Assembly (NCBI RefSeq): GCF_000170915.1
Contig: NZ_ABCT01000010.1
Coordinates: forward strand, 1-64,000
Reading direction: 5' to 3'
DNA from: Limnobacter sp. MED105
GTDB lineage: Bacteria; Pseudomonadota; Gammaproteobacteria; Burkholderiales; Burkholderiaceae_B
Length of the DNA: 64,000 nt
The stretch's first letter is position 1. Each line of letters starts with the position of its first letter. The position numbers and the translations under genes were made by a program. The notes under the pieces are model-generated. The model ran no database searches and had not been told where the DNA came from. It saw only the letters and a program-made list of their open reading frames with translations. Of this stretch, positions 1,945 to 35,383 are shown one piece after another.

Positions 1945-4900
1945 TTATTGTTGTCGCCTTGCCATGGTTTCCCATGCTTTTTGCAAACGCTTGACAGACA
2001 CTGGCATTGGCGTACGAAGTTCTTGGGCAAACAGCGAGACCCGCAGTTCCTGGAGTTGCCAGGCAAACTGGCTCAGGCTTTCATCTTCCTGACCCTTCAA
2101 TTGTGAACTGGCACGGACCCAGTGTAATTGAAGATCCATGACATCTTTCATCAACTGCTTATCTCGATCAATTGAATTGCGCACTCGCTCAAGGCGAATT
2201 TGTGCAGCCTTCAAGTAGCGGGGGTAATGGGCCAGCTGCTCCCAGGGCTTTTTAAGCAAGAAGCCTTTCGGCAGCAACCAGTTCAACTGGTTTTGAATGT
2301 CGGCAACGCACTCGGGAAATGATTTTGACAATGCCTGAAGTTTTTTGCTGAGCGCACTGTATTCATTCAACACAGTCAACAGAACTTTTCCGATTTCCTG
2401 GGCAATCAGGTTCATCCTGCTTCGCGCTTCCTGCGCCTTGGTGTTGAACTCATCTTGCGTAGTGGGCAAGCCTGTAGCAAGCGCACTTCGCATCAAGGTT
2501 AGCTTGATCCACTGCTGCTGAAGTTCTTCCGATGAACCCAAAGGCATGTACAACATGGCCACTTTCTGAAAATCAATCAAGTTCTTGGTCAGGTACTTCA
2601 AAGGCTCTTTCAAGGCAATGTTGAACAAGCGCAGTACACCGTCAAGATGCACTTTGCGGGCAAGCGCTTCTTCATCGAATACTTCGACAATGCAATGGTC
2701 CCCCATGTCTTTAAGGGCTGGATAACCGAAAAACGTTTGGCCTCCACGCTTGATCTCGAGCATATCGGGCAAGCTACCAAAGCTCCAGTCGGTGATCGGC
2801 TGATCGTTGAACGCACTGGAGCTGGCTGAATTGGATGGCTTTGTTGTAGAAGCTTGTGAAGCGCCGCCAACAGTGGCCCCCACCTGGGCACGCACCTGCT
2901 CCACCACATCGGAGCTTTTAAAACTTTCTTGTGCTTTGCGGCCCCATTCAGCCCTCAGGGCCGACAAGCTGCGTTGCATATCAAGCTGACGCCCGTGCTC
3001 GTCCACCAATTTGAAGTTCATGAAATGGTGTGGCGGTAAGGTTTCGATCCGGAAGTCGCTCAAGAGTGGCCGGGCCGGCGTTTCACTGGCCACAAAATCG
3101 CGAAGGCGTTCCAGAAGCGGCTTTTCATAAAGCGTTGAATCAAAATGCGCTTGGGCAAACTTTTCCGCAAATTGCGGTACTGGTACACAGTGACGGCGAA
3201 GCTTCTGCGGCAAACTTTTCAATAACAGAAGGGCTTTCTCTTTCAGCATTCCGGGCACTAGCCATTCTGTACGACCCACATTCACTTGATTCAGCAGCAT
3301 CAGGGGAATAGTCAAGGTGACGCCATCGCGGGGGCTACCGGGTTCAAAGTGATAACTCAGGTCAAAGGCCAAGCCTCCCATTTCAAGCTTCTTGGGATAA
3401 AACTCGGTGGTAATGTCACCGGCCTTCTTGCTGAGCAGGTCTTGCTTGTTCAGGTACAGCGCAGCAAGGTCTTCTTTGCTGGCTTGTTTGGCCCAGTTTT
3501 CCAGGGTTTGCTGGTTGTAAACTCCTGCAGGCAGTTTGTCATCGTAGAACTGGGCAATCAGCGCCTCATCTACCAAAATATCCTGGCGGCGGGCCTTGTG
3601 CTCCAGCTTTTCAAGGTCTTCAACCAGCTTGCGGTTGTGTACATAAAAAGGCACATTCGTTTTTACTTGCCCAGGCACCAATCCTTCATGAATCATCAAC
3701 CTGCGCGCATCGGCCTGGTTGAACCTGGCCAGGCTCACACGGCGCTGAGAGTAAATCGGCAAACCATAAATGGTGCCTGTTTCCAGGGCGACCGCTTGGC
3801 CAGATCCCTTCTCCCAATGCGGATTGTTGTGGTTGCGTTTGACAAGGTGTGCACCCACCTTCTCGATCCAGTCCGGTTGAATTTTGGCCACACTGCGGGC
3901 ATACAACCTGGTGGTTTCAACCAGTTCAGCAGCCATGATCCACTTGCCGCCTTTCTTGAACAGGTTCGATCCCGGATGAATTGAAAACTTAATGCTTCGT
4001 GCCCCCAGGTAAACCGGATCCGTTTCGTGCTTCAAACCGATGTTGCCCAACAAACCAGCCATCAGGGCCATATGAATTTGATCGTATTCCGCCGCCTTGG
4101 TATTCAAAACCCACTTTTGATCTTTCACCATGGCGGTAAGCTGCTGGTGAACTTCGCCCCACTCGCGCAGGCGGTTGGCAGACAAATATTTGCGTTGTAG
4201 CGTGTTCTTAATTTCTCTATTCGTTAAATTTTGTTCTTTTAAATTAAAGTAATACTTCCATAACTTAAGAAACGACATGAAATCGGACTCTGTGTCGTCG
4301 AACTGCTGCTGAGCGTTGTCTGCAGCTTCTTGCGCGTCAATTGGGCGATCACGCGGATCCTGAATCGACAAGGCCGCAGCCAACACCAGCAATTCATTCA
4401 GGCAGCCCCGCTGACTGGCTTCAAACAGCATTCGGGCAATTCTGGGGTCCAGTGGCAACTTGGCCAGCGCACGGCCTATTTTGGTCAATTGCCCGGCATC
4501 GTCCAAGGCATTCAACTCGCTGAGCAGTTGATAACCGTCGGCGATTGCGCGCCCCATTGGGCGTTGAAGGAAAGGAAAATCCTCCACCTCGGTTAAATGC
4601 AGGCTTTTCATCCGCAAAATGACAGACGCCAACGAAGAACGAAGGATCTCAGGATCGGTGTAATCGGTGCGACCCGCAAAATCTGCTTCTGCATACAAGC
4701 GAATACAGACACCATTGGCCACTCGACCACAACGCCCCGCCCGCTGATTGGCCGACGCCTTTGAAATTCGCTCTACCTGCAACATTTCAACTTTGTTGCG
4801 GTAGCTGTAGCGTTTCACTCGAGCCACGCCTGAATCAATTACATAGCGAATGCCGGGAACGGTTAGGGAAGTTTCCGCGACGTTGGTGGACAACACAATC

Positions 4901-5814
4901 CGCCGCCGGCCACTGGGCTTGAAAATGCGCTCTTGCTCTTGTGCGGTCAGTCTTGCAAACAGGGGCAAAACTTCCAGCGTTTGCCGCACGTTCTTGCCCA
5001 GAAAATTTGCCATGTCGCGAATTTCACGCTCACCAGGCAGGAACATCAATATGTCGCCTTGTCCCTCACGGCAAAGTTCTTCTACAGCATCGAGTGTGGC
5101 TGCCTGAAAAGCATCTTCATCCACTTCATCGGCCGGGTTAACCGGTGCATTTTTTCGGCGACTGGTGTCGAAATCGTTGGGGTCTTTGTAACGAACTTCG
5201 ACCGGATAAAGGCGGCCAGACACTTCGATCACCGGAGCGGGCTTGCCCTGGGCATTTTCAAAATGTTTGGAGAAACGCTCGGCGTCGATGGTGGCGGAAG
5301 TCACAATCAACTTCAAATCGGGCCGCTTGGTGAGCACCTCTTTGAGATAGCCCAACAAAAAATCAATATTCAGGCTACGCTCGTGCGCTTCGTCAATAAT
5401 GATGGTGTCGTACTTCTTGAACAGCGGATCGGTCTGGCTTTCAGCCAGCAAAATACCGTCGGTGACCAATTTCACTGCGGTGTTGGCATTGGATTGATCT
5501 TGAAACCGGATTTTAAAACCCACCCATTGCCCAAGTTCGGAATTCAATTCCTGCGCAATCCGCTTGGCCGTGGCGGTCGCTGCCAGGCGACGGGGCTGCG
5601 TATGAACAATGCTTTGGCCTTTCAGCCCTCGCCCCAGTTCCAGGCACATTTTCGGCAACTGCGTGGTTTTACCGGAACCAGTTTCGCCGCACACAATGAC
5701 CACCTGGTTCGAGGCAATCAGCGCCTTGATTTCTTCACGACGCTGGGAAACCGGCAGCTCTTCGGGGTATCGAATCTCGGGTAGGGACTGGAGGGTTTGT
5801 TCTTTTGACAACAC
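1945..5814 (-). CDS. hrpA: ATP-dependent RNA helicase HrpA
   Basis: 1289 residues, the normal size for HrpA, a DEAH-box helicase linked in E. coli to mRNA processing and rescue of stalled ribosomes. Walker A is GETGSGKTT at residues 43-51, the DEAH box at 141-144, the SAT motif is in LIVTSATIDAERF, and the QRAGRCGR helicase motif VI is near residue 360. Helicase-associated, OB-fold and the long HrpA-specific C-terminal domains (DUF3418 type) follow. The start is a GTG (GTG TTG TCA). It is divergent from argA across about 150 bp and heads a three-gene minus-strand unit. Confidence 0.96.
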   Translation of the reverse strand: MLSKEQTLQSLPEIRYPEELPVSQRREEIKALIASNQVVIVCGETGSGKTTQLPKMCLELGRGLKGQSIVHTQPRRLAATATAKRIAQELNSELGQWVGFKIRFQDQSNANTAVKLVTDGILLAESQTDPLFKKYDTIIIDEAHERSLNIDFLLGYLKEVLTKRPDLKLIVTSATIDAERFSKHFENAQGKPAPVIEVSGRLYPVEVRYKDPNDFDTSRRKNAPVNPADEVDEDAFQAATLDAVEELCREGQGDILMFLPGEREIRDMANFLGKNVRQTLEVLPLFARLTAQEQERIFKPSGRRRIVLSTNVAETSLTVPGIRYVIDSGVARVKRYSYRNKVEMLQVERISKASANQRAGRCGRVANGVCIRLYAEADFAGRTDYTDPEILRSSLASVILRMKSLHLTEVEDFPFLQRPMGRAIADGYQLLSELNALDDAGQLTKIGRALAKLPLDPRIARMLFEASQRGCLNELLVLAAALSIQDPRDRPIDAQEAADNAQQQFDDTESDFMSFLKLWKYYFNLKEQNLTNREIKNTLQRKYLSANRLREWGEVHQQLTAMVKDQKWVLNTKAAEYDQIHMALMAGLLGNIGLKHETDPVYLGARSIKFSIHPGSNLFKKGGKWIMAAELVETTRLYARSVAKIQPDWIEKVGAHLVKRNHNNPHWEKGSGQAVALETGTIYGLPIYSQRRVSLARFNQADARRLMIHEGLVPGQVKTNVPFYVHNRKLVEDLEKLEHKARRQDILVDEALIAQFYDDKLPAGVYNQQTLENWAKQASKEDLAALYLNKQDLLSKKAGDITTEFYPKKLEMGGLAFDLSYHFEPGSPRDGVTLTIPLMLLNQVNVGRTEWLVPGMLKEKALLLLKSLPQKLRRHCVPVPQFAEKFAQAHFDSTLYEKPLLERLRDFVASETPARPLLSDFRIETLPPHHFMNFKLVDEHGRQLDMQRSLSALRAEWGRKAQESFKSSDVVEQVRAQVGATVGGASQASTTKPSNSASSSAFNDQPITDWSFGSLPDMLEIKRGGQTFFGYPALKDMGDHCIVEVFDEEALARKVHLDGVLRLFNIALKEPLKYLTKNLIDFQKVAMLYMPLGSSEELQQQWIKLTLMRSALATGLPTTQDEFNTKAQEARSRMNLIAQEIGKVLLTVLNEYSALSKKLQALSKSFPECVADIQNQLNWLLPKGFLLKKPWEQLAHYPRYLKAAQIRLERVRNSIDRDKQLMKDVMDLQLHWVRASSQLKGQEDESLSQFAWQLQELRVSLFAQELRTPMPVSVKRLQKAWETMARRQQ

Positions 5815-18155: not shown

Positions 18156-19427
18156 TTAAATCAGAATCAATAAAACCGCAGCCAAAACTGCACCCCACAC
18201 GGCTCCAATCAAGGGCATCATCCATTCATATCGGGAAAATACCGGGCGCAAGGCCTTCTCAAACTCCATCGCGGGCAACCCCGACAAGCGTTCGACAATA
18301 ACTTCCTCAATTCTCAAGGCATCGTTGAGGTACACACGCGCTGCCATCAAATGTGCTTCCAGTTTGCTGGCGAAAATTTTTGCAGCGTCGCGCTTGATGG
18401 CCACCCATTGCTCTGCGCCCAAGATAGTCACCAACAAAGGCTTGATCCCGCTGGACTCCAGATCCATGACACGTTGAACATGGTAATCAATTAACGATGA
18501 CAAATTCTTGGCATTGGGCCCCCTGCACAGTGCCAGAACAATATTCTCAGTGGTCAACACCTCACGTGCGGCAGTTTGCGCAAACAGTTCAGAGATGTGT
18601 TTTTGATCCCGGAAAAAGAAACCTGTGAATTTGCCCAAACGAATAGTGCCGTGATCTGGATGAAAAAACAGGCTTTCCAGCGCCAGCTCGTTGGCCAGCG
18701 CACCGAGTACCACACCCACCACGATCAACCAGTACCATTGAATGTCAAACAGTGAAATTCCAGCCAGCAACACACCAACGACCAAACCTGCGACCAATGA
18801 AAAACGAATGAGGTAAGCCATGGGGTCTTTACCTGCACTTTTGAACAAATCTACGACCAAGAATGGTTTGCTGGTGACCACATCCAATACCAGTGTTTTA
18901 AGGCTAAGGTAGTAGGCGGGCTTCTTTTGTAGATCCAGAATAATCTGCTTGGCCACTTCCGGCACAATGCCGCGAATTCTGAAAATAATTGAATTCTGTA
19001 AAAAGCTCGGCAGGCTTTCCCACAATGTCGGCTTGTGTTTGAGCATCACCTCGCGGCAGGCCAGGTCTGCCGTTTCCTGCATGGGTGGAGTCAGGCGATC
19101 CGACAAACCTTGAGCAGGAATGCGCTTGATCATTTCATCCAGGGGCAGTAGCTTGTGAGTCATCAAACGCACAGCTATTTCGGCCATCACCGATTTTTGA
19201 TGGGGCACCAAACCCTGCCAACCCAAGCCCTCAAGGCCCAACTGATGTAAACCGAGTTTTCTGAACAGGGGAATGCGCCAACCCTTAAATTCTTTGGGAT
19301 TGAACATCAGCCAAAGCGCGGCGGCCTGAAAAAACCATGCCAGAAAGAGTCCTGTGGCTGCCATGGCCAAGAAAACAGCCCAAGCAGGAAGCCCCAAATG
19401 TAGGAAGGAAAAATCCAAAACGATCAT
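18156..19427 (-). CDS. DUF445 family membrane protein (paralogue A)
   Basis: 423 residues. Membrane segments near residues 10-40 and 215-260 and a C-terminal one (about 400-423) frame a large helical cytoplasmic or periplasmic part. The signature near the N-terminus, ALWLMFNPKEF and GWQGLVPHQKSVMA, and the LWESLPSFLQ block identify DUF445 (YheB/YjiN-like). No function is established. It is paralogous to the gene at 19605, from which it diverges across 177 bp. The preference for this start rests on the first membrane helix beginning near residue 13. Confidence 0.85.
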   Translation of the reverse strand: MIVLDFSFLHLGLPAWAVFLAMAATGLFLAWFFQAAALWLMFNPKEFKGWRIPLFRKLGLHQLGLEGLGWQGLVPHQKSVMAEIAVRLMTHKLLPLDEMIKRIPAQGLSDRLTPPMQETADLACREVMLKHKPTLWESLPSFLQNSIIFRIRGIVPEVAKQIILDLQKKPAYYLSLKTLVLDVVTSKPFLVVDLFKSAGKDPMAYLIRFSLVAGLVVGVLLAGISLFDIQWYWLIVVGVVLGALANELALESLFFHPDHGTIRLGKFTGFFFRDQKHISELFAQTAAREVLTTENIVLALCRGPNAKNLSSLIDYHVQRVMDLESSGIKPLLVTILGAEQWVAIKRDAAKIFASKLEAHLMAARVYLNDALRIEEVIVERLSGLPAMEFEKALRPVFSRYEWMMPLIGAVWGAVLAAVLLILI

Positions 19428-23851: not shown

Positions 23852-24151
23852 ATGAGTAACATACCAGCAGATCCACTGTTGCGGATTAAAAAACTATCAG
23901 ATTCACTCGAAAATAACGAATTTGAAAACACCAGTGCTCTAATTTTTGCGTTCCGCCAAGAGAAAGACCTTTTACGCGATTTACCTGCGGTGTTCGAAGG
24001 CGCACTGGAAAGCATCCTTGAGCGCCTGGAGAGCACCGCCATGTTTGGCGGGGAAAGTTGCTCATTCAGTCAAAGTGACTTGCTAGCCGCACTCACCATC
24101 TGGCTGGAAAAAGCAAAGTCTTATCTAGAGAAACAACTGGGCATTGTTTAA
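23852..24151 (+). CDS. Small hypothetical helical protein
   Basis: 99 residues, no family recognised. Mostly helical and acidic ([20 protein letters not shown], then [11 protein letters not shown]), with no membrane segment. Its stop codon overlaps the stop of the convergent histidine kinase in the palindrome TTTAAA. The reading frame is supported by its position and composition only. Confidence 0.6.
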
Positions 24152-25491
24152 ACGAAGCCCGGTTTTTCAGGTAATTCTGAAACCGTTTTCTGAGCAATCT
24201 CTTCTATCAGTTTGTCCAGCTTCTCAAAAGAAACGGGTTTGGTCATGTGCAAGTTCATCCCCGCTTGCGACGACATGGTGATACTTTTGTCGTCCGACAA
24301 TCCCGACAGGGCACAAATAAAACTGTGTTTCGAAGCGGCGCTCTCGGACCCCCGAATCACTTTCGTGGCCTCATGCCCATCGAGATCCGGCATATCAATA
24401 TCCATCAACACCAGGTCAAAACACTGTTTCTCGCACAATTCCACTGCCGGCAAACCGCCAGTGGCTTGCACCACCTGATGCCCTCTTTTGCTCAAATAAC
24501 GGTCTAGCAACTTGATATTCATGGGGTGATCGTCTACCACCAGAATACTCAACGCCTTGGAGGGCGATTCGACTGATTTACCCGACTTGGCCGGGCTCAA
24601 AGCGGAGGCCAGTGGCAAATTCAAACTGACTGTAAACACCGAGCCAACCCCCAACTCGGAACTGACATCGATACGCCCACCCATTAATTCCACAAGCCCT
24701 TTGCAAATAGCCAAGCCCAAACCTGTACCACCATATTGGCGATTGATCTCTCGACTGGCCTGGCTAAACCGTTGAAACAGTTTTTGCAAGGCTGGCTGGC
24801 TGATCCCGATTCCGCTGTCAACCACTTCAATAAACACCTCGATTCGCCCTTGCGCGGGTTGCGAGGTCATTAAACGCATTTTTACGTAACCGATGTCAGT
24901 GAACTTCAAAGCATTGGATACCAAATTTTGCACAACCTGTCGCAGCCTGTTGGCATCGCCATGCACAAAGCATGGGCCTTCAGTCTCATTGACCAGCGAA
25001 AATTCCAGGTTCTTTTTGAGAGCCAAATTGCGGTTCAGTGAATACACCTGACGCACCATGGCATCGAGATCAAATGGCGACGGGTCCAATTTCAAACCAT
25101 TGGCCTGAATTCGGGAATACTCCAGCACATCACTCAAAATTAAATGCAGGCTGGTCGCAGAACTGGAAATATTGCGCACATCGCCACGTAACTCTGGATC
25201 ATCCAGCTGTTCCTCAAGCAACTTCGAAAAACCGATAATGGCATTCAACGGAGTGCGTAATTCATGACTGATCGTGGCCAAAAATTCGGACTTGGCTCGA
25301 TCAGCGCTTTCGGCCTGTTCTTTGGCCAGCACCAAATCGCTGACATCGAGGCAAACCGCATACATGCTGACTCCCGGCGCTTTTGCTTCGCGCTGAAGGG
25401 TCAACTGAAAATATTGTGGCTCTACCCCGCTACGCCGCGTGGTTGAAAAAACCAGCGACTCCCGATTTGGAAAAGCCTCTGGGCGCGACAA
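24148..25491 (-). CDS. Hybrid sensor histidine kinase, 3' part (HisKA-HATPase-REC) of a frameshifted gene
   Basis: This open frame carries the end of a PAS domain, the H box [21 protein letters not shown] (phosphorylated His), the ATP-binding N box (NALKFTD), G1 (VDSGIGIS) and G2 (GGTGLGLAI), and a receiver with VVDDHPMN and the phospho-acceptor in [11 protein letters not shown]. The listed 5' boundary is a TTG without a ribosome site. The PAS reading continues upstream in the same frame to about 25580, so the true gene is almost certainly 24148-26078 (643 residues if one base is restored). It would phosphorylate an unlinked regulator or phosphotransfer protein. Confidence 0.85.
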
Positions 25492-26103: not shown

Positions 26104-26808
26104 TCAGGCCGAGATAGTTCGGGACAAAAACTCCAGCGATCGCCCCCTGGCCAATGCTGCCGCTTTTTGTTGATACATTGGACGTCCCCAACAATTAAAG
26201 CCGTGATCCACATTCGGATAGGTGTGAATTTCCACGCCGTGATTGGAATCAAATGCCGCTTTAATTTGGGAAACAGCTTCCATTGGGATGAAGCCATCTT
26301 TCTCGGCAAAGTGCATCAACATTGGAATTTTCGCCTGTGGTGCGCGATCAAGTGCAGTGTGAATACCACCACCGTAATAGCAAATGCTTGCGTCCACAGC
26401 ACCTGGTGTAGTGCCTACCAGATAAGACAACATGCCACCCATACAAAAACCCAGGCTCGCTACTTTGCCAATGACTTCAGGCCGCGCCTTCAATGCATTG
26501 GCAGCGGCACACAAATCCTCAACCGCCTTGGGGAAGTCCATACCCTGCATCAAACCAAATCCTTTTTTGAAACCGGCGTCGTCGTAGCCAATATCTACAC
26601 CTGCTTCCTGGCGCCAGAATACGTCGGGAGCAAGCACCACAAAGCCATCGCTGGCGTACTGGTCTGCTACTTCACGAATATGCTGATTTACGCCAAAAAT
26701 TTCTTGAATCAACAAAATACCCGGGCCTTTGCCTGTGGGAGGAAGGGACAGATACGCACCGAACTGGCCGCCGTCTTTGGCATTGATCGAGATTCTTTGA
26801 GACTGCAT
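26104..26808 (-). CDS. Dienelactone hydrolase family protein
   Basis: 234 residues from the ATG at 26808, which has GAGGAG 5 nt upstream. IQEIFGVNQHIREVAD is the conserved dienelactone hydrolase block, GFCMGGML the nucleophile elbow with a cysteine nucleophile, and EKDGFIP and DHGFNCW carry the Asp and His of the triad. Classic members open dienelactones to maleylacetate in chlorocatechol breakdown, but most chromosomal copies are of unknown substrate. Its promoter region faces the LexA-box gene. Confidence 0.92.
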   Translation of the reverse strand: MQSQRISINAKDGGQFGAYLSLPPTGKGPGILLIQEIFGVNQHIREVADQYASDGFVVLAPDVFWRQEAGVDIGYDDAGFKKGFGLMQGMDFPKAVEDLCAAANALKARPEVIGKVASLGFCMGGMLSYLVGTTPGAVDASICYYGGGIHTALDRAPQAKIPMLMHFAEKDGFIPMEAVSQIKAAFDSNHGVEIHTYPNVDHGFNCWGRPMYQQKAAALARGRSLEFLSRTISA

Positions 26809-26913
26809 AAAGCTCCTCTCTGTGTGGACGAAACAAGTGAGCTTGGATTGTAACAGCCTGATATTGTTCGGGCGCACTTTACAAGACTACAAAAAACCAC
26901 AGAAAAGAAAAAA

Positions 26914-26933
26914 TACTGTACACAGTTACAGTG
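26914..26933 (+). promoter_or_regulatory. Candidate LexA (SOS) operator
   Basis: TACTGTACACAGTTACAGTG contains CTGT-N8-ACAG, the LexA half-site spacing used in beta- and gammaproteobacteria. It overlaps a possible -35 (TGTACA, 26918-26923), 17 nt upstream of TACAGT at 26941-26946, and lies 55 bp before the ATG of the small membrane protein. A LexA repressor there would block that promoter. Confidence 0.65.
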
Positions 26934-26988
26934 TTTATTGTACAGTTGTTTCCAGGGCGATATAAAAACAGTGAAAGGAGTTTTCAAG

Positions 26989-27258
26989 ATGAGCATCAAG
27001 CGATTTACTGTGTTTTTTGTGCTGTGGGTATTGGGCTGTGCCTTTGTTTTGGAGCCTGCATTTATTGCACCCTTGTTTGAAACCAGCAGCACGCTAGAGC
27101 TGGCTTTTGCCGGAAACCCCGGACAATTGGGTGGTTTGGAATTGAACACAAACAACAGCACTGCGGTAGAATCACTGGATCATTTCAGAGTACTTTGTTT
27201 GCTCTACTTCGGCTTGCCTGTTGCTGTTTACCTCGCAACACAGTGGAAGGAACTCTAA
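26989..27258 (+). CDS. Small two-helix membrane protein, candidate SOS-induced
   Basis: 89 residues from the ATG at 26989, with AAAGGAG 8 nt upstream. Hydrophobic helices lie at about 6-27 (FTVFFVLWVLGCAFVLEPAF) and 67-83 (VLCLLYFGLPVAVYLA), joined by a polar loop rich in Asn, Gly and Ser. No family recognised. The operator upstream suggests DNA-damage induction. Small inner-membrane proteins of this sort in other bacteria inhibit division or act as toxins in the SOS response, but that role is inference. It is followed 17 nt later by a lipoprotein gene that may be co-transcribed. Confidence 0.7.
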   Translation: MSIKRFTVFFVLWVLGCAFVLEPAFIAPLFETSSTLELAFAGNPGQLGGLELNTNNSTAVESLDHFRVLCLLYFGLPVAVYLATQWKEL

Positions 27259-27275
27259 TTCATCCGTGTTGAATC

Positions 27276-28340
27276 ATGAAGTATGTCGTAGCTGGTTTGT
27301 TTAGTGTCATTGCAGGTTTTTTAATACAGGGTTGTGCCGCATCGAATCCATATTTCGACTCAAGCAAACCCCACCATCGACCTGATGGCTTTGTGAACTC
27401 GGATGGCACGATTGTTTCAAAACCAATGTCGGATCTGCTTCGTTGGTACCGAGAACGATTCGGCAAAGACCTGCCACCACCTCCCGGCGAATTCATCGCC
27501 AGTTATGCCGATTTCCCCCTGAAGGCCTTCGACAAAAGCCAACTTTCCAAATACTCGGAAACCACAGCCACTTGGCTAGGACACGCCACTGTAATGGTTC
27601 GTGCAAATGGTTTTACGATGTTGACCGACCCCCACTTTTCGATTCGCGCATTTCCAGTGCAATGGGCTGGACCTTCCCGAAAGGTTCAATCGCCAAGCCG
27701 TGTTGAAAACCTTCCAAAAATCGATGTTGTGGTGATTAGCCACAGCCACTATGACCACCTGGATCACAACACAGTGGTCAAACTGGCCAAACAACAACCT
27801 GATACTCTTTTTCTTGTACCACTTGGCCTTGAGTCACTGCTGAAAAGCTGGGGTGTTGAAAACGTCAAGGAAATGGACTGGTGGGAAACTCACACCATCG
27901 GGGAGAACCAGATTACTTTCGTACCGGCATATCACTGGTCAGCGCGTACGCTGACAGATAGAAATAAATCGCTGTGGGGAGGCTGGACGATGAAAAACCC
28001 CAAGCTGAACTTCTATTTCTCTGGCGATACCGGCTACAGCAAAGACTTCGAAGAAATTGGAAAACGTTTGGGTCCATTCGACTTCAGCGCAATTGCAGTC
28101 GGTGCCTACGAGCCTCGGTGGTTTATGAAAGCACAACACATTAACCCGGATGAGGCCGTGCAAATTCACAAAGATGTTCGTTCATCCAAGTCCATGGGTA
28201 TCCACTGGGGTACTTTTGAACTGACCGATGAACCTCTCGATCAACCCATTGGCGATTTGAAACTTGCCTTGGAAAAACACAGTGTGCAACCCAGCGACTT
28301 TGAGCTACTGGGCCACGGCGACACGATTAATTTACGTTGA
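27276..28340 (+). CDS. Metallo-beta-lactamase-fold lipoprotein, NAPE-PLD/UlaG-like
   Basis: 354 residues. A lipoprotein signal (LIQGC, acylated Cys at residue 19) precedes the hydrolase domain. ATWLGHATVMV and the zinc motif HSHYDHLD (H-x-H-x-D-H), FSGDTGYS and the late MGIHWGTFEL supply the metal ligands of the NAPE-PLD-like subgroup. The likely substrates are phosphodiesters such as N-acyl-phosphatidylethanolamine or related lipids, with the enzyme anchored to an envelope membrane. It lies downstream of the small membrane protein and may share its promoter. Confidence 0.9.
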   Translation: MKYVVAGLFSVIAGFLIQGCAASNPYFDSSKPHHRPDGFVNSDGTIVSKPMSDLLRWYRERFGKDLPPPPGEFIASYADFPLKAFDKSQLSKYSETTATWLGHATVMVRANGFTMLTDPHFSIRAFPVQWAGPSRKVQSPSRVENLPKIDVVVISHSHYDHLDHNTVVKLAKQQPDTLFLVPLGLESLLKSWGVENVKEMDWWETHTIGENQITFVPAYHWSARTLTDRNKSLWGGWTMKNPKLNFYFSGDTGYSKDFEEIGKRLGPFDFSAIAVGAYEPRWFMKAQHINPDEAVQIHKDVRSSKSMGIHWGTFELTDEPLDQPIGDLKLALEKHSVQPSDFELLGHGDTINLR

Positions 28341-35255: not shown

Positions 35256-35383
35256 GAAGTTGGCACTTTCCTGCAACTGAATGCGGGACGCTTGAAGCGC
35301 AGAAGTTGCCTGTGTATTTTTTTGCAATTTAATCAGCCTGTCACCGAGATGGCGTACAACCATACCTGTTGTATTTGACAGAA

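What the first reader, a model, noticed from the sequence alone, without database searches (positions are those of the whole stretch)
26914..27258. LexA-type operator in front of an unknown small membrane protein
CTGT-N8-ACAG lies 55 bp before a gene for an 89-residue two-helix protein of no recognised family, overlapping a possible -35. LexA regulons often contain small membrane division inhibitors or toxins. If real, this is a new SOS effector. The adjacent metallo-hydrolase lipoprotein, 17 nt downstream, may be carried along.
Basis: partly seen in the sequence, partly recalled or inferred. Interest (0 to 1): 0.72.

Follow-up and report, generated by a model that had tools for sequence, protein, structure and literature searches.

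The report
Conserved LexA-type operator, envelope operon
In Limnobacter bacteria, a DNA-damage-type control site sits nearly unchanged in front of two genes, one for an unknown small membrane protein and one for an enzyme resembling the human lipid-cutting enzyme NAPE-PLD, which suggests but does not prove that DNA damage switches on an envelope response.

Summary
The box is real. CTGT-N8-ACAG (26916-26931) is unremarkable by count in the window, but all 14 Limnobacter loci that carry the 89-aa gene keep it, while the flanks have diverged (23 of 33 element columns invariant, 5 of 118 flank columns). It has the form of the genus's own boxes at recA and lexA.

Three corrections. The box lies inside a longer conserved element: a further half-site makes ACTGTACA-N16-TGTACAGT (exact in 13 of the 14), which LexA alone does not explain; and its LexA score is modest (14.8, against 15.6-25.9 for other perfect boxes scored with their own locus left out). 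The protein was found only in this genus, is under purifying selection, matches no family, and its fold model is poor. The downstream gene is a NAPE-PLD-type lipoprotein (E 2.7e-87), adjacent in all 14; one incomplete relative has it without the small gene or the box.

Most likely a LexA-controlled envelope operon (0.55); another regulator is the main rival (0.28). Damage induction is untested.

The parts
26914..26933 (+). LexA-type box TACTGTACACAGTTACAGTG (core CTGT-N8-ACAG at 26916-26931)
   Evidence: core kept in 14 of 14 orthologous loci; best score in the window with a genus LexA matrix, 14.8, next 11.8
26915..26946 (.). outer inverted repeat ACTGTACA-N16-TGTACAGT enclosing the box; its two TGTACA hexamers are 22 bp apart
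   Evidence: exact in 13 of 16 genus genomes, one mismatch in G003, none in the other 252 family genomes; repeat pairs
26989..27258 (+). gene of the 89-aa two-helix protein, found only in this genus
   Evidence: Ka/Ks 0.03-0.30 in 10 comparisons
27276..28340 (+). NAPE-PLD-type metallo-beta-lactamase-fold protein with a lipoprotein-like N-terminus, second gene of the presumed operon
   Evidence: Pfam Lactamase_B_2; PDB 4qn9 E 2.7e-87; lipobox-like cysteine in 14 of 14 N-termini, judged by eye

Best explanation
The box is a LexA operator of a two-gene envelope operon of Limnobacter. In undamaged cells LexA sits on CTGT-N8-ACAG and keeps the operon low. On DNA damage LexA is cleaved, and a two-helix inner-membrane protein is made together with a NAPE-PLD-type lipoprotein that hydrolyses N-acylated phosphatidylethanolamine or a similar lipid. 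The small protein most likely acts in the inner membrane, on the divisome or on membrane lipids, while the cell repairs its DNA. The extra half-site TGTACAGT next to the box is probably a second regulator's or a promoter contact. Shown: the site, its conservation, the adjacent gene pair, and a LexA protein in the same genomes with boxes of the same form at recA and lexA. Inferred: co-transcription, LexA binding, induction by damage, membrane topology, enzyme activity, and what the small protein does.
For: Box kept in 14 of 14 orthologous loci, 66 to 76 bases before the ATG (the G004 start moved to the ATG seen). The element is 76-100% identical to the window's, the flanks 37-84%. In the two most divergent genomes the bases inside the box have changed but CTGT, ACAG and the 8-bp spacing have not. 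The same box form stands upstream of recA (15 of 15 unbroken loci) and lexA (12 of 14; the other 2 have CTGG-N8-ACAG). In the genus search for perfect TACTGT-N8-ACAG, the present site occurs in 14 genomes, recA in 14 and lexA in 12 of 16; no other group that I could form, by identical letters, exceeded 6. LexA has a recognition helix like that of E. coli (E. coli recalled) and is followed by an ORF that looks like imuA (by eye). Best matrix score in the window. The element stays in L. humi, where the divergent dienelactone-hydrolase neighbour is missing, so it belongs with this gene pair.
Against: The interior ACACAGTT is richer in G and C than the other boxes. Matrix score 14.8 (11.0 to 18.5 in relatives, G003 lowest), below every other locus scored with itself left out (15.6-25.9); that matrix rests on 6 loci, 3 of them chosen only because they carry a perfect box. 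With an E. coli matrix from recalled boxes it scores 13.1, hardly above 12.7 for an unrelated site at 18654. Conservation extends over TGTACAGT, which scores -5.3 and -3.9 as a LexA box. No plus-strand promoter was found at the box. No expression data were available.
Confidence: 0.55

Rival explanations
1. The element is the operator of another dimeric regulator that reads ACTGTACA-N16-TGTACAGT; the CTGT-N8-ACAG inside it is incidental. The operon then answers to some envelope or lipid signal, not to DNA damage.
For: The outer repeat is exact in 13 of 16 genus genomes and stands once in each of them at this spacing. 'ACA' after CTGT is kept (14 of 14 but for one base in G003), although the other boxes here mostly have ATA or TTT there. 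It explains TGTACAGT, which LexA does not. A hybrid sensor kinase gene lies one gene upstream (24148-25491).
Against: It does not explain why the inner ACAG and its 8-bp spacing are kept when bases around them change. No DNA-binding domain was recognised in the 13 window proteins scanned, the gene pair and 11 neighbours between 20912 and 32797, the kinase included. Sites with 2 mismatches elsewhere in the genus (4 in 3 genomes) are no commoner than the reversed-pattern control. TACTGTACA also occurs in another perfect box next to a small ORF, G008:C44.
Confidence: 0.28
2. The conserved block is mainly promoter DNA: TTGTAC as a -35 with an upstream contact, giving constitutive or growth-linked expression; the box is a by-product.
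For: TTGTAC lies 17 nt before TATAAA in the window, by eye.
Against: The -10 is not conserved across the 14 loci, whereas the upstream block is. The sigma-70 scan finds no plus-strand promoter there. A -35 does not need a 32-bp inverted repeat.
Confidence: 0.1
3. A lux-type box (CTG-N10-CAG) read by an acyl-homoserine-lactone LuxR protein.
For: LexA and lux boxes share the CTG-N10-CAG frame (recalled).
Against: Autoind_bind (PF03472) was not found in any of 16 genus genomes; the control search finds it in E. coli.
Confidence: 0.01

Closest known systems
SOS-induced membrane division inhibitors: SidA (Caulobacter), YneA (Bacillus), SosA (Staphylococcus) (passages of PMC9578287)
   Same: small membrane protein behind a LexA-type box; SulA not found in this genus (0 of 16)
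   Different: two predicted helices with a loop between them; next to a lipid-hydrolase-type gene; no effect on division known
DinQ and TisB membrane toxins of E. coli (search listing and abstract starts)
   Same: small hydrophobic protein behind a LexA-type box
   Different: 89 aa with two predicted helices and invariant residues in both; no RNA family recognised in 26700-27300
NAPE-PLD, solved structure 4qn9
   Same: residues 94-350 align in one stretch; HSHYDHLD, HW, GDTGY and HWGTF stand against HNHYDHLD, HW, GDTGY and HWGTF; that these bind the metals is recalled
   Different: lipoprotein-like N-terminus; next to a small membrane gene; substrate untested

Membership tests
LexA (SOS) regulon | CTGT-N8-ACAG box upstream of the gene | tested here: met
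LexA (SOS) regulon | box conserved before orthologues | tested here: met
   14 of 14 loci
LexA (SOS) regulon | LexA in the same genome, and this box form at recA and lexA | tested here: met
LexA (SOS) regulon | matrix score in the range of other targets | tested here: inconclusive
   14.8 against 15.6-25.9 with the locus left out; 13.1 with a matrix of recalled E. coli boxes, whose own left-out scores run from 7.2 to 25.1
LexA (SOS) regulon | box overlaps a promoter | tested here: inconclusive
   no plus-strand sigma-70 site at the box; start site unmapped
LexA (SOS) regulon | induction by DNA damage through LexA cleavage | not testable with these tools
   no expression data at hand
SulA family | PF03846 match | tested here: not met
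   no Pfam family for the 89-aa protein; 0 of 16 genomes carry PF03846
NAPE-PLD family | sequence homology with the metal-binding motifs | tested here: met
   which residues bind metal is recalled
NAPE-PLD family | hydrolysis of N-acyl-phosphatidylethanolamine | not testable with these tools
   none
Lux box / quorum-sensing regulon | an acyl-homoserine-lactone LuxR protein in the genome | tested here: not met
   0 of 16

The most novel reading that the evidence does not exclude
The SOS response of Limnobacter drives an envelope lipid programme: DNA damage releases a two-gene operon whose small two-helix membrane protein halts division or guides a NAPE-PLD-type phospholipase, and a second regulator reading TGTACAGT gates it, so that one operator integrates DNA damage with a membrane signal.
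Probability: 0.2. Interest if true: 0.8.

Novelty: new member of a known kind. Interest (0 to 1): 0.5.

Why it matters
If LexA controls this operon, the SOS response reaches into membrane lipid chemistry in a genus where SulA was not found, and a group of NAPE-PLD-like bacterial proteins gains a physiological setting. The operator is short, conserved and easy to test.

Tried and rejected
Lux-type box: rejected, Autoind_bind in 0 of 16 genomes.

Box belongs to the divergent dienelactone-hydrolase gene: rejected, because the element persists in L. humi without that neighbour (one search used the opposite-strand ORF of that gene as the query).

Phage or plasmid origin: no match at E 0.01 in either collection; no PHROG or PADLOC family.

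Second LexA box at TGTACAGT: rejected by score, -5.3 and -3.9.

Structured RNA: one chance-level Rfam match in 26700-27300, E 2.4.

Relatives of the small protein outside the genus: 1 of 252 other family genomes gave E 0.004 with two stops inside (G271), taken as noise; 0 of 84 genomes outside the genus; the GTDB contig scan gave 11 loci, 7 titled Limnobacter and 4 MAG contigs titled only Gammaproteobacteria or Burkholderiales, whose contig lengths are those of genus genomes G001, G003, G008 and G013.

Fold search: not run, the model being too poor (pLDDT 60, pTM 0.32).

Relatives of the enzyme outside the genus: 54 genomes have one at E 1e-40; I looked upstream in the 14 fetched loci and could read 13 (L137 was misplaced at a contig edge). 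None of the 13 had a CTGT-N8-ACAG box upstream, and by eye none had a like small gene.

One search read six minus-strand loci unturned; one search repeats it correctly and only one search is used.

Literature, listings only: two searches on Limnobacter with LexA or SOS response gave the same two papers, each naming Limnobacter once; LexA with phospholipase gave two papers on other matters by title; NAPE-PLD with bacteria gave 64 and 420 papers, of which I saw 20 each, none on a bacterial enzyme of this kind by title; searches added nothing used except PMC9578287, of which I saw passages.

Full report
The sequence. The box CTGTACACAGTTACAG is at 26916-26931, 57 bases before the ATG of an 89-aa ORF (26989-27258); a 354-aa ORF follows after 17 nt. 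Three such boxes occur in the window against 0.85 expected. The other two, at 35366 and 36147, overlap long ORFs.

Orthologues. The 89-aa protein is encoded in 14 of 16 genus genomes; the two without it are 85% and 65% complete. Of 252 other family genomes none has a convincing match. Ka/Ks against the window is 0.03 to 0.30 in ten comparisons, some with synonymous sites near saturation; G008 was saturated and G015 and G004 were not compared. It is thus a real protein gene. It has no family in Pfam, NCBIfam, PHROGs or PADLOC; the best PDB match has E 0.2. Fifteen residues are invariant, among them W13, C17, E22, P23, D64, R67, C70, Y73, G75 and P77. The model shows two long helices but has low confidence.

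Conservation of the box. CTGT-N8-ACAG is present in 14 of 14 loci. In an alignment of 170 upstream bases, 23 of 33 element columns are invariant against 5 of 118 flank columns; G015 and G004 keep 79% and 76% of the element but 41% and 37% of the flank, and G014 keeps the whole element with 41% of the flank. The invariant letters spell TACTGTAC..A...ACAG..TTT..TGTACAG.

More than a LexA box. The box is enclosed by ACTGTACA-N16-TGTACAGT: exact in 13 of 16 genus genomes, with one mismatch in G003, and in none of the other 252 family genomes. With 2 mismatches allowed, 4 further sites appear in 3 genomes, no more than the reversed-pattern control, which rings in 6; one site with a shorter spacer is in G008. 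Seen otherwise, two TGTACA hexamers lie 22 bp apart. The TGTACAGT part scores -5.3 and -3.9 as a LexA box, so LexA alone does not account for it.

LexA of the genus. A LexA DNA-binding domain was found in 14 of 16 genomes and RecA in 16 of 16, one of them (G010) broken. recA carries CTGT-N8-ACAG in 15 of 15 unbroken loci; in G010 no box was seen in the 135 upstream bases held. lexA carries it in 12 of 14, the other two having CTGG. In the window's genome TACTGT-N8-ACAG gives 9 matches, against 4 for the reversed pattern: lexA, recA, ruvA (by eye), a DUF3717 gene, one about 85 bp from a DNA-methyltransferase-like ORF (by eye), one before a 113-aa ORF, the present site, and two inside long ORFs. 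Over 16 genomes the present site is matched in 14, recA in 14 and lexA in 12; the next groups with identical letters have 6 and 5. Loci whose box interior varies, such as the DUF3717 gene, are undercounted by this grouping.

Scores. A matrix from six loci (lexA, recA, ruvA, the DUF3717 gene and two others with perfect boxes) scores the site 14.8, with 11.0 to 18.5 in relatives; the six score 20.2 to 27.2 when included and 15.6 to 25.9 when left out; the site is the best in the window, the next being 11.8. A matrix of E. coli boxes recalled from memory gives 13.1, with 12.7 for an unrelated site in the window. The score alone would not convince; conservation does most of the work.

Neighbours. 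Eleven neighbouring proteins between 20912 and 32797 were scanned with Pfam: enzymes, DUF1329, ABC1, a weak CoxG match, a hybrid sensor kinase with a receiver, and two without a family; no DNA-binding domain. Other ORFs in that stretch were not scanned.

The partner gene. The 354-aa protein matches NAPE-PLD (PDB 4qn9) at E 2.7e-87 over residues 94-350, with the motifs recalled as metal-binding intact. All 14 N-termini carry a lipobox-like cysteine (by eye). The two genes are adjacent in 14 of 14 genomes; the gap is 17 nt in 9, 6 to 41 nt in 4, and in G004 the script chose an upstream start that overlaps by 23 nt. G010 (65% complete) has the enzyme gene without the small gene and without the box; in G002 the contig ends inside the enzyme gene. 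Matches to the enzyme occur in 70 of 268 family genomes at E 1e-40. The small gene and the box thus go together, and the enzyme is more widespread.

Mechanism. The simplest reading is a LexA-repressed operon. SulA was not found in 16 genomes, and small membrane proteins stop division in other SOS systems (SidA, YneA, SosA; passages of PMC9578287), so a division inhibitor is possible. The pairing with a lipid-hydrolase-type protein points as much to membrane lipids. Neither is shown. The rival, another regulator on the outer repeat, remains open.

Verdict. Observation confirmed; interpretation partly supported; interest moderate, because the operator is as well conserved as those of recA and lexA and the partner is unexpected, while regulation rests on sequence alone.

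Noticed in passing
L145 and L155, box at 1501 in each: An 89-aa ORF (MKLNTTVRNNIALACPEAA...) starts about 12 bp after the centre of a perfect LexA-type box in two genomes (G007, G009); the G007 one has no Pfam match: another candidate SOS gene.
   Followed up: partly
L073 1501-1820; like ORFs in L156, L172, L176: A DUF3717 gene (Pfam-tested in L073 only, the rest by eye) has a perfect TACTGT-N8-ACAG box about 55 bp before it in four genomes, so this unknown family may be SOS-linked in Limnobacter.
   Followed up: partly
L170, L171, L174, near 1267-1308: A palindrome TACTGTACTTATGAACAGTA (or its complement) lies about 40 bp from a short ORF which in L174 matches the C-terminal end of Phage_integrase; whether it is an integrase operator is unclear.
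   Followed up: partly
L127 and L128, about 1100 bases after the start of the enzyme match: In two genomes of another genus a perfect CTGT-N8-ACAG box with an A-rich interior lies just after the NAPE-PLD-like gene, perhaps before the next gene.
   Followed up: no
L091 around 4898-5001: In Limnobacter humi the dienelactone-hydrolase gene beside the operon is missing and a sensor kinase ORF comes next.
   Followed up: no
L050 and L055: The lexA boxes of two genomes (G004, G014) carry CTGG instead of CTGT, so lexA's own site is less strictly kept than the site studied here.
   Followed up: no
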